From Dethiobacter sp. (GTDB lineage: Bacteria; Bacillota; Dethiobacteria; Dethiobacterales; Dethiobacteraceae), in assembly GCA_018333635.1 (NCBI GenBank), contig JAGXTL010000019.1:1-64000 (forward strand): DNA of 64,000 bases. Direction: 5' to 3'. The position numbers and the translations under genes were made by a program. The notes beneath the pieces were generated by a model. The model worked only from the letters and a program-made list of their open reading frames with translations, was not told the origin of the DNA and did no database searches. Positions 6,715-55,368 of this stretch are shown here, piece after piece. Each line of letters opens with the position of its first letter. Positions within the stretch are counted from its first letter, which is position 1.

Positions 6715-6832
6715 TCCTTAACAACGCAAATATTTTGCAATCGACTACATTTTATCACAGCGTCACAACCTGCACAACTCTCACGCAATTTTCTAATACC
6801 GTAAGTTCCATAAACGTTTGTCAAATTAAATT

Positions 6833-6863
6833 AGGAGGCTACTCGATTAAAAGCTAGCCTCCT
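6833..6863 (-). terminator. Hairpin at the end of the broken orphan gene
   Basis: Arms aggaggcta and tagcctcct flank a 12-nt loop. The stop codon of the orphan reading frame (6854-6856) lies inside one arm. There is no strong T-run after it on the minus strand, so its action as a terminator is uncertain. Nearly the same sequence recurs at 8156-8187 after another orphan gene. Confidence 0.4.
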
Positions 6864-7294
6864 ACTCTCCATTGCATGCCTGATAAATAATTTTCATCAG
6901 CATAGCGTTCGAGTATTTTTAATTTATCTTCACCCGTCTCACCCCAAATTGCATGCATGCTGAGAGGCGGCCGTCCTCCGTTACTCCGCAGATCTGGAAA
7001 ACTTAGCAAACCATAAATCCATAAGTTCTTATGTTCCACTCCATACAGTAGATTGGAATCCCATTAACGTCCAAAAAAAGAACTAATTTGTGGCCGGAGA
7101 TCGGTTTGCTCAAGACCAGAAATTTGATCAAAACCAAAGGTGGTCATCAGTTCAAAAGGAACACCGCTCTGCCTGTTCCGCACAAAAGTTGAATAGGGAT
7201 TGCGATAAACAATTAATCCGCTAAAATAGTAGAATAAAAATAGCCAAATTAAGACTTTAATGGAGAGAAAGGCGATGGTTTTCCTGTGTTTCAA
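6854..7294 (-). pseudogene. Orphan small membrane-anchored protein interrupted by an in-frame stop
   Basis: Two reading frames at 7294-7064 (76 residues) and 7039-6854 lie in the same frame, separated only by a TAA at 7064-7066. Read through, they make one protein of 146 residues with no other stop. A TTG start at 7294 has GAGGGAG about 8 nt upstream. The N-terminus has one hydrophobic segment (residues 8-30, IAFLSIKVLIWLFLFYYFSG), suggesting an anchor or signal peptide; the rest is soluble with no motif I know. A single CAA-to-TAA change (Gln to stop) would explain the break. Alternatively the first 76 residues may be the functional product. The family is not recognised. Confidence 0.5.
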
Positions 7295-7659
7295 AACAGC
7301 ACTCCCTCTTTTAAAGCTTTTAGCTTATCATCCCTGGCACTCCAATTTCAACGCCGTGTCTTTTTACCAAGACTTTAGCAAGAACAGCATAAACGAAACC
7401 AAGAGAACATCGCAAAAATCACGCTTTTTAGCCATATTCGCCAATTTTTGTTTTTTTCCTGCCACCATGAGAAGATCACTCTCCTCAATATTTGTTTCAG
7501 CAACTATCGCCGGACTCGCGACATCCCTCCTTGCAATTTTTGGCAATAGCTACCATATTCGCGTTGTAGAACCCGGTGTTTAGCAAGACAATCTGCTGAC
7601 GCGTCTTTTTTATCCATTAGCTTGGACGTTGGAAACCATATAATTTCTTGGTATGGTAC
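7295..7659. other. Gene-free stretch
   Basis: No convincing gene is seen. A minus-strand frame of 34 codons from ATG 7468 has a GAGGAG 12 nt upstream and a hydrophobic tail, but no other support. The plus-strand frame covering 7260-7583 has no plausible ribosome binding site or family features. Confidence 0.3.
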
Positions 7660-7704
7660 AAAAATTCCCCTCCCCTGGAGGGGTGCCCGTAAGGGCGGGG
7701 TGGT
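7660..7704. repeat. GGGGTGG-type dispersed repeat, single copy
   Basis: The segment reads aaattcccctcccctggagg and continues with gggtgcccgtaagggcgggg. It matches, in inverse orientation, the units at 55098, 55238 and 55542, which read caccccggtgctacgcacca then cccctccaagggagggg. It contains the small palindrome cccctcc(c)tggagggg. No coding capacity. Confidence 0.7.
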
Positions 7705-7752
7705 CGCGTGGACGAGTGGGACAAATCACCTGTCCCCCTAGAGGTGGTCTAG

Positions 7753-8151
7753 TTTCCCAATAAAAAAAGATGCCTCATCCAGTCCCTCTCCCTCACTCTG
7801 CCCTCACCCTAACCCTCTCCCAGAGGGAGAGGGGAACTGTGTCCTCCCCAACAAAAAAACACCTCCGCTTTTCGCGACTTCTACAAAGCGCGAGGCGTCT
7901 TGATAAGTTCAGCAGATTCTCGGCAACGGTAAACCGGTAGGCATTTCTACGCCACGAGTGCCGCCAAGGACGGTGCGCAGCCAAACACTGCCTGTGCCAC
8001 TCTCCAAGCGACCGACAATTTCCGCTTCCCGTCCCAGGGGATGTTCCCGCAACGCCAAGCATACTTCTGCAGCCGCTTCTTGACCTTCATATCACCGGCC
8101 ACTATTTCCACACCGCAGGAGCAGGCGGTATCGGCAAGCGAAACGACTACT
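7753..8151 (-). pseudogene. hypE 3'-end remnant with a 442-bp internal deletion
   Basis: This 399-bp stretch is a close duplicate of the region at 9938-10811. Bases 7909-8082 match the last part of hypE (10127-10300), including the stop codon and the C-terminal PRIC codons. Bases 8083-8151 match hypE 10743-10811, so hypE positions 10301-10742 are missing from the copy. The join falls at gcttcttg|acctt. It also shifts the frame, since the SLADTA and VAGD codons run into a different frame from the C-terminal part. The copy also carries the non-coding flank with the GAGAGGG hairpin repeat. Several point differences show it is not recent. It cannot make a working HypE and is a decayed duplicate. 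Confidence 0.9.
7799..7834. repeat. GAGAGGG hairpin repeat, copy 1
   Basis: The core palindrome cccctctccctctgggagagg (read on one strand) is flanked by the invariant tail ttagggtgaggg. It is here in the orientation ccctcaccctaaccctctcc. It was probably carried along with the hypE duplication, since the copy at 9984 has the same flank. Confidence 0.85.
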
Positions 8152-8155
8152 TAGA

Positions 8156-8187
8156 TTAGGCTGCTACTCAATTAAAGGTTAGCCTCC
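8156..8187 (-). terminator. Hairpin after the unknown membrane protein gene
   Basis: It lies just past the stop codon of the 8194-9441 gene. Arms tagcctcct and taggct(g)cta pair imperfectly around a loop close in sequence to that at 6833-6863. No strong T-run follows, so terminator function is tentative. Confidence 0.35.
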
Positions 8188-8193
8188 TGAATA

Positions 8194-9441
8194 CTAACGA
8201 CAATTGGTTGTCACAATCAACAGTCCGCCGCGAACTGTCCCTACCAGTATCCAGCCATGTTTTGCTTGTGCCCAATTAACCCAACCCATTGGATCAATTG
8301 CTATCTTTATACCTTCCCCTTCGATAAGGACGCTAAAAGGGCTTGTCAAAACGTGATCCGGGGCTACGCTTATAATCCTGTCTTGTGCCCTTGTAGCTGT
8401 ATATATAGGCGGAGGCCAAGGTATTGGCTCTCTCTCACTCAATTGCCAGGAAACTTGGCCTGAGTTCTGGTTAATCCTTACGTGCATCGTATAGGCATCA
8501 TCCGTAGTAACTATATAATTGTATTGGTAAGCGAGCTCATCAGGATTAACCCTTTTAATAACGCCTTCCAGGAAAAATGGACTTGTTGTCCCCCTGGTTA
8601 CTGGAGACAAAGTTAACCCAGGAAAACCAGCCTCTTCAGGCGTTGGCCTGGGGATCCGCGCCAATAATCTCTTGCGACCTTCAGAAAGCTCGATTTGGTA
8701 TAGGTCTCCCGTTCTATCGACAATATAGGCAGCATCTTCTTCCACCAGGGGAAAGCCAAGCTCTCCATCGCCTAACCAGAGACGCCGTACGCTGACCGAC
8801 TCCTCAGCCAAATGCCACACACCGTAATGAAAGGTATAGTAATAAGCGGTGCCTGCTGACACAGCCATCTGGAGCACTAAAGCCGCTAGGTAAATTTTTC
8901 TCTTTTTCATCTCGTTTGCGCTCCAGAGCAGGACTACAATAACTGCCGGCACAGCCCACGCAAGAGTAAGTGAAACCAATACGCGTTGAGCCACAAAAGA
9001 TTCGCCAACTCCGTCTCTGGAAACCATAATGATCTCGAAGAGGCCAAAGCTGAGCAAAATTAAATAAGGTATGGCAATCAAAAGTCCTATACTTTTTTTT
9101 GTAGCCAAGGCCAAACTCGCCGGTACTAAAAACAGAATATGAAACGCCATATGATGCATCGGATTGAACAAAGGCACACTAACCCAAGGTGGCCAAAAAC
9201 CCACATAACCAGTAATCCAAAAATAGACCAGTAAGGAAAACAGCATGGAAACAAAGGCCATACCTTCTTTGTTTAAGATATATTCTTTGGCAGCTCTCTT
9301 CTTTAATGCAACCCAGATTTTAATATTTTTTATCTTGCTGACACCGGACTTTTTTGCTGAGGACAGAGCAAGCAAAACATAAGATATAAATAGGAATAGC
9401 ACCAGCCCGTACAGTGCAATGTAATTGATAAATCCTTCCAC
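8194..9441 (-). CDS. Unknown protein: five-helix membrane domain plus soluble C-terminal domain
   Basis: A 415-residue protein that I do not recognise. Hydrophobic segments lie near residues 5-28, 62-80, 95-112, 116-138 and 153-175, with a sixth near 183-200. A long soluble region from about residue 215 follows. Its short beta-like repeats (AYIVDRTGDLYQIELSEGRK, then YNYIVTTDDAYTMHVRIN) resemble propeller-type blades such as YIVD..G.LY. The C-terminus ends TTNC. It stands alone between repeat-rich stretches in a patch that also holds a broken orphan gene and the hypE remnant, so it may be accessory DNA. Its function cannot be stated. Sensing or binding by the outer domain is only a guess from architecture. 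Confidence 0.65.
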   Translation of the reverse strand: MEGFINYIALYGLVLFLFISYVLLALSSAKKSGVSKIKNIKIWVALKKRAAKEYILNKEGMAFVSMLFSLLVYFWITGYVGFWPPWVSVPLFNPMHHMAFHILFLVPASLALATKKSIGLLIAIPYLILLSFGLFEIIMVSRDGVGESFVAQRVLVSLTLAWAVPAVIVVLLWSANEMKKRKIYLAALVLQMAVSAGTAYYYTFHYGVWHLAEESVSVRRLWLGDGELGFPLVEEDAAYIVDRTGDLYQIELSEGRKRLLARIPRPTPEEAGFPGLTLSPVTRGTTSPFFLEGVIKRVNPDELAYQYNYIVTTDDAYTMHVRINQNSGQVSWQLSEREPIPWPPPIYTATRAQDRIISVAPDHVLTSPFSVLIEGEGIKIAIDPMGWVNWAQAKHGWILVGTVRGGLLIVTTNCR

Positions 9442-9495: not shown

Positions 9496-9620
9496 TGATT
9501 AAAAAAGATGCCTTATTCGTTACCTCTCCCTCACTCTGCCCTCACCCTAACCCTCTCCCAGAGGGAGAGGGGACTTGTTGGTTTTTCTCCTCTGCCAAAA
9601 GGAGAGGGGATATGTGTCCC
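9496..9620. repeat. GAGAGGG hairpin repeat, copy 2, with a degenerate neighbour
   Basis: A full copy lies at 9539-9572, followed at 9583-9611 by a half-conserved version (ctcctctgccaaaaggagag). The flank aaaaaagatgccttattc is shared with the copies near 7760 and 9950. The rest of the 9442-9727 interval holds nothing recognisable. Confidence 0.8.
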
Positions 9621-9727
9621 TACCCAGAGGGATTGCCGTAGCGCAGACACTCTCTGCCCTCTTGTCTCAGGAGGCGTAACGAAACTTTAGTCTCACTGCG
9701 TCCTTTCTTTCAGTGAATTGCAGACTA

Positions 9728-9937
9728 TCACAGAATGCTGAAGCGAGCGTTAAGTGAAAGCAGCGATCAGCGAACCGCGATTCGCAGCGTTAAAACATGC
9801 CAACGGTTCACATGCAATCTGCCCGGAGGTTTTGGCATGTTAGCAAGAATTGCGGTTCGCAGCTGCGGAAACGTGCGAGCGAAGCAACTGGGTAAGGATG
9901 CAACACCTAAAGAAGACACTCCGTGTTTTGATATAAT
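9728..9937. repeat. MITE-like long-inverted-repeat element, copy A
   Basis: About 200 bp with an imperfect palindromic layout. The left arm has aagcgagcgtt, then gcgaaccgcgattcgcagcg, then aaaacatgccaa. The right arm mirrors it with ttggcatgtt, then gcaagaattgcggttcgcag, then cgtgcgagcgaagcaactgg. The centre is cggttcacatgcaatctgcc. It has no coding frame. Near-identical copies lie at 23452 and 55341, with fragments at 53288 and 55196. The structure fits a non-autonomous mobile repeat, but no transposase or target duplication is visible. Confidence 0.8.
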
Positions 9938-9983
9938 TTCCCAATAAAAAAAGATGCCTTATTCAATCCCTCTCACTCACTCG

Positions 9984-10053
9984 CCCTCACCCTAACCCTC
10001 TCCCAGAGGGAGAGGGGACTTGTTGGTTTTTCTCCTCTCCCAGAGGGAGAGGG
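9984..10053. repeat. GAGAGGG hairpin repeat, copy 3 and adjacent short copy
   Basis: A full copy with the ccctcaccctaa tail lies at 9984-10017. A second hairpin core without the tail lies at 10033-10053. Both lie just past the hypE stop codon on the minus strand, so they may act as a transcript-end hairpin for the hydrogenase operon. Confidence 0.8.
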
Positions 10054-10126
10054 GAACTGTGTCCTCCCCAACAAAAAAACACCTCCGCTTTTCGACTTCT
10101 ACAAAGCGCGAGGCGTCTTGATAAGT

Positions 10127-11128
10127 TCAGCAGATTCTCGGCAACGGTAAACCGGCAGGCATTTCTACGCCACGCGTACCGCCAAGAACGGTGCGCAGCC
10201 AAACACTGCCTGTGCCGCGCTCCAAGTGTCCAATGATTTCCGCCTCCCGTCCCAGGGGATGTTCCCGCAACGCCAGACATACTTCTGCAGCAGCTTCTTG
10301 TTTCGCCACCAGAATCATTTTTCCTTCATTTGGTAAGTATAGCGGGTCGAGGCCCAAAAGTTCGGCGGCAGCCCTTACCTCGGGACGAACCGGCAAGGAT
10401 TTTTCCTCCAGCACGATGTCTAAAACGGCTCTTTCAGCCAGCTCATTAAGCGTGGCACCGACTCCGCCGCGGGTAGGATCGCGCAGCCAGCGCAAAGAGG
10501 AAAAATACGGCGAAATCGCGTATATCAAGCCATTTAAGGGCGCACAGTCGCTGACAACCTGTGTCTGGAAAGAAACTCCCGTGCGACAGGAGAGCACGGC
10601 AATACCATGGTCGCCTGCCGTCCCACTTAAAATCACCGCATCGCCGGGCCGGACGTGTTCCGCTCCTAGAAGCAAGCGCTCGTCTGCGCGCCCAATGCCT
10701 GTAGTCGTGATGTAGAGTTTGTCTGCCTGACCGCGAGGCACCACCTTGGTATCACCGGCCACTACTTCCACCCCACAGGAGCGGGCGGTATCGGCAAGCG
10801 AAACGACTACTGCCTCCAATTCATCAAGCAGCAGCCCTTCCTCCAGAATGAAAGAGACGGCCAGATAGAGCGGCTGCGCTCCGCCAGCCAGCAAATCATT
10901 GACCGTACCGCAGACTGATAACTTCCCTATATCGCCTCCCGGAAAAAATGGCGGCTGGACCACAAAAGAATCGGTGGTGACAGCCAGCCTGCCGTCAACA
11001 GGCGAAAGCAGCGCCGCATCACTTAGCCTGCCCAGTTCGGCGTGTCTGAAGTGCCGCAAAAAGAGGTCTTTAATCAGTGCTGCGGCATACAAGCCACCGT
11101 CGCCGTGCGCCAACAATACACGCTTCAT
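10127..11128 (-). CDS. hypE: Hydrogenase maturation protein HypE
   Basis: A 333-residue member of the PurM/AIR synthase fold. HypE takes a carbamoyl group from HypF onto its C-terminal cysteine and dehydrates it with ATP to a thiocyanate, the source of the cyanide ligands of the NiFe site. The diagnostic C-terminus PRIC is intact. Also visible are GDGG near the start and DSFVVQPPFFPGGDIGKLSV, VVAGDTKVV and DPTRGGVGATLNELA. The start is set at ATG 11128, which overlaps the hypD stop codon in ATGA; a longer frame from 11248 is not family-like. It is the last gene of the operon. A decayed duplicate of its 3' end lies 2.2 kb away at 7753-8151. Confidence 0.96.
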   Translation of the reverse strand: MKRVLLAHGDGGLYAAALIKDLFLRHFRHAELGRLSDAALLSPVDGRLAVTTDSFVVQPPFFPGGDIGKLSVCGTVNDLLAGGAQPLYLAVSFILEEGLLLDELEAVVVSLADTARSCGVEVVAGDTKVVPRGQADKLYITTTGIGRADERLLLGAEHVRPGDAVILSGTAGDHGIAVLSCRTGVSFQTQVVSDCAPLNGLIYAISPYFSSLRWLRDPTRGGVGATLNELAERAVLDIVLEEKSLPVRPEVRAAAELLGLDPLYLPNEGKMILVAKQEAAAEVCLALREHPLGREAEIIGHLERGTGSVWLRTVLGGTRGVEMPAGLPLPRIC

Positions 11129-12213
11129 GCCGGAGCAACTCCTTTTTTTCTGTCGTAGCGGTAATAAGCGGCGCAAGCACCTTCCGATGAGACCATGCAG
11201 GGACCAAGAGGTGTGAGCGGCAGACAGCGGCCGGCAAAAAGCGCACATTCCGTTGGGATGATAGCGCCGCGCAGCACATCACCGCAGCGGCAAGCCTCCT
11301 GCTCCTGCGGCACAGCGCCATGCGGCAAATCAAAAAGCAAGGCTGCGTCATGGCCTGCAAACTCAGGTTTCAATACATAACCGCTCGCGGGAATAACACC
11401 GAACCCGCGCCATTCGGCAGCGGCGATATTGAACGTCTCTGCCAGAAGCTTTTGTGCAAGCAGGTTTCCTTCTTCCCTCACCACGCGCGGATAAGCGTTG
11501 ATTACACCTGGCTTCCCTTCCTCTATCATCCTGACTACTGCTGCGATGCCAAGCAAAATATCCCTCTCGCCAAAGCCAACGACTGCTGCCGGCATGCCGT
11601 AGAGAGAGGCCACAAAATCCTGAGCCTGCCGGCCGATTACACTGCTGACATGTCCGGGCAACAACAATCCATCCAAGCCGTGAGGAGCAGCCAGCAAAGC
11701 ATGTAATGCCGGCACCACAGTTTTCAGGCAACTATAAAGGTAAAAATTAGTCAAACCGCGTTCTTTCGCTTGTTTCACCGCCAAGGCCATTGCCGGAGCT
11801 GTAGTCTCAAAGCCCACGCCAAGAAAAACGACAGGGCGCTGCCGATTGTTTGCCGCTATCTTTAAAGCGTCTAAAGGAGAGTAAACAATACGGACATCCG
11901 CCCCATCTGCTTGCTCCTGTTCCAAACTAGTCTTACTGCCGGGAACACGCAGCAGATCGCCAAAAGTGGCCACGATACAGCCGGCACCTGCCAAGGCGAT
12001 CATCCGGTCCAGATCGCCGGCAGCTGTGACACAGACAGGACAACCCGGCCCTGAGAGCAGGCGCAGCGGTTCAAGCAAGGGGCGCAAACCATATTTAGAG
12101 ATGGCTGTGGTGTGCGTTCCGCATACTTCCATAATAGCGAGCTGTCCGGGCAATTTTTTTTGAATTGATGCCAACAGTTGCTGCGCTTGCGCCAATTCAA
12201 TCCCGCTCAGCAT
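11125..12213 (-). CDS. hypD: Hydrogenase maturation protein HypD
   Basis: A 362-residue iron-sulfur protein that, with HypC, forms the scaffold on which the Fe(CN)2CO group is built. Family motifs are IMEVCGTHTTAISKYGL, LLSGPGCPVCVT, VFLGVGFETTAPAMALA and a cysteine-rich C-terminus (CRCGDVLRG, then TECALFAGRCLPLTPLGPC). I set the start at ATG 12213 (MLSGIELAQAQ); a frame open to 12306 adds residues lying inside hypC. It overlaps the end of hypC by 17 bp and the start of hypE by 4 bp, so the genes are translationally coupled. Length and motifs are complete. Confidence 0.95.
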   Translation of the reverse strand: MLSGIELAQAQQLLASIQKKLPGQLAIMEVCGTHTTAISKYGLRPLLEPLRLLSGPGCPVCVTAAGDLDRMIALAGAGCIVATFGDLLRVPGSKTSLEQEQADGADVRIVYSPLDALKIAANNRQRPVVFLGVGFETTAPAMALAVKQAKERGLTNFYLYSCLKTVVPALHALLAAPHGLDGLLLPGHVSSVIGRQAQDFVASLYGMPAAVVGFGERDILLGIAAVVRMIEEGKPGVINAYPRVVREEGNLLAQKLLAETFNIAAAEWRGFGVIPASGYVLKPEFAGHDAALLFDLPHGAVPQEQEACRCGDVLRGAIIPTECALFAGRCLPLTPLGPCMVSSEGACAAYYRYDRKKGVAPA

Positions 12214-55097: not shown

Positions 55098-55368
55098 TAC
55101 CACCCCGGTGCTACGCACCACCCCTCCAAGGGAGGGGAATTTTGGTCGCAGTGACAACCGCAGCCTCTCGTTACGCCCCTGAGGGATCTGTAGACTAGAG
55201 CCTTGCCCAGAATGCGGAAGCGAGCGTTTCTCGTAAATACCACCCCGGTGCTACGCACCACCCCTCCAAGGGAGGGGAATTTTGGTCGCAGTGACAACCG
55301 TAGCCTCTCATTACACCCCTGAGGGATCTGTAGACTAGAGCCTTGCCCAGAATGCGGAAGCGAGCGTT
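55098..55368. repeat. 131-bp tandem duplication (GGGGTGG repeat plus partial MITE left end)
   Basis: Unit 1 spans 55098-55228 and unit 2 spans 55238-55368; they are nearly identical. Each starts taccaccccggtgctacgca, contains cccctccaagggagggg, and ends aagcgagcgtt, which is the left end of the MITE-like element. The 55000-55785 gap holds no gene. Confidence 0.85.

What the first reader, a model, noticed from the sequence alone, without database searches (positions are those of the whole stretch)
7753..8151. Decayed hypE duplicate with a 442-bp internal deletion beside the intact operon
The copy reproduces 9938-10300 and 10743-10811 joined at gcttcttg|acctt, with the flanking non-coding hairpin repeat included. 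The join shifts the frame. A second hypE fragment just past the real one, in the same direction, records a duplication followed by deletion, possibly driven by the repeats around it.
Basis: seen in the sequence. Interest (0 to 1): 0.55.

Follow-up and report, generated by a model that had tools for sequence, protein, structure and literature searches.

The report
Displaced hypE tail beside inserted gene
A bacterium whose close relatives come from alkaline rock-fed groundwater carries a broken leftover of the end of a hydrogenase-maturation gene; it may be an older version pushed aside when a neighbouring gene arrived, and similar leftovers lie beside relatives of that neighbour.

Summary
In detail: window 7753-8151 is a degraded hypE 3' end (codons 106-128 and 277-333) with a 442-nt frame-shifting deletion, beside intact hypE (10127-11128). 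It is probably not a recent copy of its neighbour. Over 243 coding columns it differs by 8.6% from the adjacent hypE but 3.7% from hypE of sister MAG G001; the tree joins fragment and G001 (93/94), although AU p=0.061 leaves the other pairing open. The fragment stands where G001 has its only hypE. Between it and intact hypE lies ORF8194, a lower-GC membrane-protein gene without family matches. In 4 of 5 loci of this gene family that I could test, an orphan 3' end of the upstream host gene follows it (hypE, argS, one further gene in G001 and G002); the G002 hypE locus has none. Among 398 ORFs in 471 kb, 3 have such orphans: hypE, argS and a short tandem repeat. I read the fragment as an old hypE tail displaced when DNA carrying ORF8194 and another hypE end joined the locus, as proposed for Vibrio effector genes. 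Dispersed hairpin repeats do not mark the breakpoints. Old tandem duplication remains possible; no reads were available.

The parts
7753..7908 (-). Dispersed hairpin repeat and intergenic DNA 3' of hypE; version without the 37 nt found in the adjacent copy
   Evidence: Shares the 37-nt gap, three base states (7779, 7782, 7791) and one 1-nt difference (7799) with G001 rather than with the adjacent copy; one base (7776) and a 2-nt insertion (7873-7874) are its own; at 7844 and 7905 it agrees with the adjacent copy against G001
7909..8082 (-). Orphan hypE 3' end, codons 277-333 plus stop
   Evidence: Translation ends MPTGLPLPRIC*; 91% aa to intact HypE
8083..8151 (-). Orphan hypE codons 106-128, in another frame because of the 442-nt deletion; R116C, V122I, T127M
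8151..8188 (-). D6b: degenerate hairpin 3' of ORF8194, homologous to D6a; its left edge is the junction with the hypE orphan
   Evidence: 84% over 38 nt to 6826-6863; 88% over 33 nt to a hairpin upstream of lspA in G001; its own fold is not better than shuffles (z -0.30)
8194..9441 (-). ORF8194: 415-aa predicted membrane protein, genus-restricted in the search made
   Evidence: ORF; no family at E 0.1 in Pfam, NCBIfam, PADLOC, PHROGs; match in 3 of 39 genomes, its own included, all of this genus; GC 45.0 against 57.1 for hypE
9498..10030 (.). Dispersed repeats between ORF8194 and intact hypE
   Evidence: At least 43 matches of 9580-9940 in G000 and 43 in G001, 40 candidates scored in each
10127..11128 (-). 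Intact hypE, 333 aa
   Evidence: TIGR02124, 408.7 bits against a cut-off of 251.6
6869..7403 (-). Relic of gene X (372 aa in G002): frame break, at least one stop, 3' half missing
   Evidence: tblastn of the G002 protein; open in G002
6826..6863 (-). D6a: strong hairpin between the X relic and lspA
   Evidence: -18.1 kcal/mol, z -4.55, 0 of 200 shuffles as good

Best explanation
The fragment is the orphaned 3' end of an older, resident hypE. Most likely history: DNA carrying a hypE 3' end of another lineage plus ORF8194 and the hairpin after it joined the locus, anchored by homology in the hypE region and joined without homology on the far side (resident hypE codon 106 to the left edge of hairpin D6b). 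The anchored side kept a complete hypE; the old tail was left downstream, out of use, and decayed: 442 nt lost inside it, about 170 nt in the intergenic DNA, about 0.55 kb of gene X. Shown: the anatomy, the fragment's nearness to G001's hypE, the position matching G001, and the same order [intact host gene - ORF8194-like gene - orphan host 3' end] at other loci. Inferred: import rather than duplication, its direction, and the joining mechanism.
For: G001 has one hypE, directly beside the window's left flank (6868-7739 at 95.3%, 7750-8082 at 96.7%, 8083-8151 at 94.2%), and no orphan of it in C7:1-2017. Over 243 coding columns: fragment-G001 9 differences, fragment-intact 21, G001-intact 14; tree fragment+G001 93/94. 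Coding sites polarised by G002 (my reading): 7 join fragment and G001, 1 intact and G001, 0 fragment and intact. ORF8194 family: argS 3' end repeated after the G000:C69 member (50 nt, 92%); 3' end of another gene repeated after the G002:C10 (51 nt, 96%) and G001:C100 (50 nt, 88%) members. In G001:C100 the orphan differs from G001's own intact end at 31 of 104 positions but from G002's intact end at 13 of 108. Control: 3 of 398 ORFs have such an orphan, two being hypE and argS. GC of ORF8194 45.0, hypE 57.1, rest of hyp operon 53.6. Ku, usable in homology-free joining, in 3 of 3 genus genomes searched.
Against: AU p 0.061 does not reject fragment and intact as sisters. Six of the seven supporting sites lie within 28 nt, so one conversion tract in intact hypE could make them. 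One non-coding site (7905) has the same base in fragment and intact and other bases in G001 and G002; at 7844 they agree against G001, with no G002 base. The G002 hypE locus has a truncated ORF8194-like gene but no hypE orphan. The argS orphan in G001:C29 has no ORF8194-like gene in the 3 kb held. No donor was found. hypE 10260-10980 is close to G001 while 10980-12180 differs strongly, so no single clean import tract is visible. A join upstream of the crossover is a duplication-type outcome, which I think less usual for this mechanism. The C69 paralog argS has GC 47.1, its ORF8194-like gene 47.6, so no contrast there. Competence was not tested. argS entered the control because of the family; the G001 and G002 cases of the third gene may be one event.
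Confidence: 0.45

Rival explanations
1. Old local tandem duplication: a unit from the hairpin 3' of gene X to hypE codon 106 was duplicated head to tail before or near the split from G001; G001 lost one copy, and in this genome each copy lost different parts.
For: D6a and D6b are direct repeats in the expected order, and D6 homology ends at the junction 8151. AU test does not exclude sisters; site 7905 unites them. G002 has a truncated ORF8194 relative between hypE and X, so such a gene may have been there before.
Against: Needs ORF8194 lost from one copy and X from the other; the two genes show no significant similarity (BLASTP E 0.067, 17 of 84 residues). In coding columns polarised by G002 no site unites fragment and intact, 7 unite fragment and G001.
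Confidence: 0.33
2. Assembly artefact: reads of co-occurring strains were joined into one metagenome contig.
For: The two named genus relatives are MAGs, and this genome is in 137 contigs; G001 has two long argS matches, 99% and 85% to G000's, a sign of mixed strains. No reads were available.
Against: Both copies lie on one 107-kb contig of a bin listed with 0.77% contamination; the joins are not in repeats; the fragment has changes found in neither allele; an argS orphan is present in two assemblies, G000 and G001, which shows that such orphans are real but not this one.
Confidence: 0.12
3. Recent duplication of the adjacent hypE driven by the dispersed hairpin repeats.
For: Repeats lie at both copies.
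Against: 8.6% from the neighbour, more than G001 is (5.8%); join and right end outside the repeats; with at least 54 repeat matches elsewhere in the genome, repeats beside a gene are unremarkable.
Confidence: 0.05

Closest known systems
Displacement of type VI effector genes in Vibrio cholerae (PMC5361080; passages read)
   Same: A new module enters behind a conserved stretch and the older gene or 3' end is shifted downstream; the authors argue that heterogeneous arrays are not explained by duplication and propose a process akin to homology-facilitated illegitimate recombination.
   Different: Here the host genes are hypE, argS and one uncharacterised gene, and the arriving gene is a membrane protein of unknown role, not an effector and immunity pair.
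Homology-facilitated illegitimate recombination (PMC3240628; only the start of the abstract in the listing seen)
   Same: One end anchored by homology, the other joined without it.
   Different: Not shown in this bacterium; inferred from sequence only.
Decayed partial gene duplicates in bacteria (recalled)
   Same: Truncation, frame-shifting deletion, changes at conserved codons.
   Different: The fragment is nearer to another species' gene than to its neighbour.
Integrative elements that regenerate a gene's 3' end (recalled)
   Same: Intact host gene on one side, displaced 3' end on the other.
   Different: No integrase seen at the hypE locus; repeat length varies from about 50 nt to several hundred.

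Membership tests
hypE pseudogene fragment | Sequence homology to hypE beyond chance | tested here: met
   E 7e-118 and 2e-21 for the two blocks
hypE pseudogene fragment | No complete reading frame | tested here: met
   Codons 1-105 and 129-276 missing; 442-nt deletion shifts the frame
Recent duplicate of adjacent hypE | Fragment and intact copy are each other's closest relatives | tested here: inconclusive
   Tree puts the fragment with G001 at 93/94; AU p 0.061 for the held pair
Displacement by homology-anchored import | Orphan carries the resident-like allele and adjoins resident flanks | tested here: met
   Flank 95.3% and fragment 96.7% to G001 in the same order; allele relation supported, not proven
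Displacement by homology-anchored import | Different genes downstream of the two 3' ends | tested here: met
   ORF8194 against X: E 0.067
Displacement by homology-anchored import | A donor lineage with matching hypE end and ORF8194 | tested here: not met
   None among 39 genomes; so not filed as a proven case
Integrative element at gene 3' end | Integrase within the element | tested here: not met
   ORF8194 is the only ORF of 80 aa or more lying wholly between the hypE copies and has no family match; the small gene at C69 was not searched
Integrative element at gene 3' end | Constant attachment core | tested here: not met
   About 50 nt at argS and the third host gene against several hundred nt at hypE

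The most novel reading that the evidence does not exclude
ORF8194-like genes form a cassette family that moves between unrelated host genes by replacing host 3' ends and leaving the old ones as orphans, without an integrase of its own: a displacement process proposed for toxin loci, here acting at housekeeping genes.
Probability: 0.15. Interest if true: 0.6.

Novelty: new variant of a known kind. Interest (0 to 1): 0.33.

Why it matters
The fragment itself is ordinary debris, but it preserves what looks like an older allele of the gene beside it and points to a repeated pattern: at three unrelated host genes of one genus a lineage-specific membrane-protein gene lies between an intact gene and an orphan copy of that gene's end. 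If import causes this, orphan gene tails become markers for where foreign genes entered and by what joins, which can be tested across many genomes.

Tried and rejected
Rejected: that intact hypE with the whole hyp operon is the newcomer. The idea arose, but G001 also shares DNA just left of intact hypE (9856-10018, 93.9%) and the operon is a patchwork against G001. Rejected: D6 as a frequent mobile repeat; the exact hairpin pattern occurs at one place in G000 and one in G002. Rejected: a known RNA family in the repeats; the four Rfam matches are all far below gathering scores. A model of ORF8194 from a single sequence has mean pLDDT 44.4, so no fold search was made. ORF8194 has no match in the plasmid and phage collections. 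The third orphan of the control, L126:4812-7193, is a short tandem repeat at the end of a gene that looks to me like a phage-type primase, with no gene between. Paper searches on hypE with pseudogene and duplication and on partial gene duplication listed 6 and 2 papers; I read none of them, and no title described this case.

Full report
Observation. Blocks 7753-8082 and 8083-8151 match 9937-10300 (84% with gaps) and 10743-10811 (91%) on the same strand. The skipped stretch is 442 nt and shifts the frame. With M1 at 11128, the fragment holds codons 106-128 and 277-333 with the PRIC end. In the 5' block three codons differ in amino acid from both intact HypE and G001 (R116C, V122I, T127M); V122 and T127 are the same in all six other sequences compared. 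In the 3' block codons 279, 284 and 285 differ silently and codon 325 differs in all three. So it is decayed, though part of its divergence looks like that of a gene under selection.

Setting. The genome is held as 2.39 Mb in 137 contigs. The two named relatives with the nearest hypE are MAGs titled CROMO_A_128 (96% protein identity) and CROMO_SB6 (88%); the start of one abstract in a listing expands CROMO as Coast Range Ophiolite Microbial Observatory, with high-pH groundwater (PMC13001230). Of 57 places listed for the fragment, 54 are matches to a dispersed hairpin repeat, with 40 of 165 candidates scored; another repeat family nearby has at least 43 matches in this genome.

Where the old locus is. 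In G001 a single hypE stands beside DNA matching the window's left flank: 6868-7739 at 95.3%, 7750-8082 at 96.7%, 8083-8151 at 94.2%. G001 has no ORF8194 there; its nearest match by identity, 83% over the first 40 residues, sits at the end of contig C100. The left flank is a relic of gene X, 372 aa in G002, cut at 6869. Hairpin D6a beside it corresponds to a hairpin upstream of lspA in G001, about 300 nt from the end of contig C49; that an insertion sequence sits in it there is my reading of two contig ends. D6b, 3' of ORF8194, is homologous to D6a, and the homology ends at 8151, where the hypE orphan ends too. In G002 a truncated relative of ORF8194 lies between hypE and X, without a hypE orphan.

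Which hypE is it. Over 243 shared coding columns: fragment-G001 9 differences, G001-intact 14, fragment-intact 21. The tree of seven rows joins fragment and G001 (93/94); holding fragment and intact together costs 7.8 log units, AU p 0.061: support, not proof. Reading the coding sites with G002 as outgroup, 7 unite fragment and G001, 1 intact and G001, 0 fragment and intact. Six of the seven lie within 7999-8026 and could be one conversion tract in intact hypE. Against this, the non-coding site 7905 has one base in fragment and intact and other bases in G001 and G002, and 7844 agrees between the two against G001. The operon is a patchwork against G001: few differences at 10260-10980, many at 10980-12180.

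The pattern elsewhere. Five family loci could be tested for an orphan host 3' end, and four have one: this hypE locus; G000:C69 (argS, 50 nt, 92%); G002:C10 (51 nt, 96%); G001:C100 (50 nt, 88%). The fifth, the truncated member at hypE in G002, has none. A sixth member, at the end of C100, directly follows the orphan there and its own far side is not held. The host gene of C10 and C100 has no Pfam match above its cut-off; I take it, by recall of motifs, for a PHP-type hydrolase, and the two cases may be one event. In G001:C100 the orphan differs from G001's intact end at 31 of 104 positions and from G002's intact end at 13 of 108, the same direction as at hypE. G001 also holds an argS orphan at C29 with parts of the same small gene that precedes it in G000, but no ORF8194-like gene is found in the 3 kb held there.

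Control. In 470,875 nt of this genome (window, 20 stretches of 20 kb, and L084) I took 398 non-overlapping ORFs of at least 110 aa and searched the last 60 nt of each within 6 kb on the same strand of the same stretch: 3 of 398 have a second copy, namely hypE, argS and L126:4812-7193, the last a short tandem repeat with no gene between. L084 was included because of the family and hypE was given, so this measures background rarity rather than an unbiased association.

Mechanism. Displacement by homology-anchored import explains the G001-like orphan and its flanks, the different genes after the two hypE ends, the lower GC of ORF8194 (45.0 against 57.1 for hypE) and the recurrence. At argS there is no such GC contrast (47.6 against 47.1). 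The joins show at most one shared base by eye, and Ku is present in 3 of 3 genomes searched, which permits but does not show end joining. An old tandem duplication with differential loss explains the hairpin pair well and is not excluded. Assembly chimerism cannot be ruled out without reads but fits poorly. A close published parallel is effector displacement in Vibrio cholerae (PMC5361080, passages read).

Verdict. Ordinary debris in itself, with a modestly interesting, recurring pattern around it: a new variant of a known kind, mechanism at 0.45.

Noticed in passing
window 8194-9441; L048; L046; L085: ORF8194 belongs to a family of membrane proteins found only in this genus among 39 genomes, without matches in four family libraries; four members share a conserved leader just upstream.
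   Followed up: partly
window 9580-9940 and 7580-7765: Two long dispersed repeat families with at least 43 and 61 matches in this genome and 43 and 57 in G001.
   Followed up: partly
window 10980-12180: hypD and the start of hypE differ from G001 far more than flanking DNA, up to 16 differences in 60 nt, a likely recombined tract.
   Followed up: no
G001 contigs C16 and C52 (L100, L103): Two long argS matches, 99% and 85% to that of the window's genome, suggesting mixed strains in that MAG.
   Followed up: no
L043:14583-15313: Two small adjacent ORFs between gene X and lspA in G002 that look, by recall, like an antitoxin and a PIN-type toxin; the window has no room for them between the X relic and lspA.
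   Followed up: no
L126:4650-4900: A gene end repeated in short tandem, at a gene that looks like a phage-type primase.
   Followed up: partly
window 55098-55368: A 131-nt direct repeat at 97.7% with 140-nt spacing.
   Followed up: no
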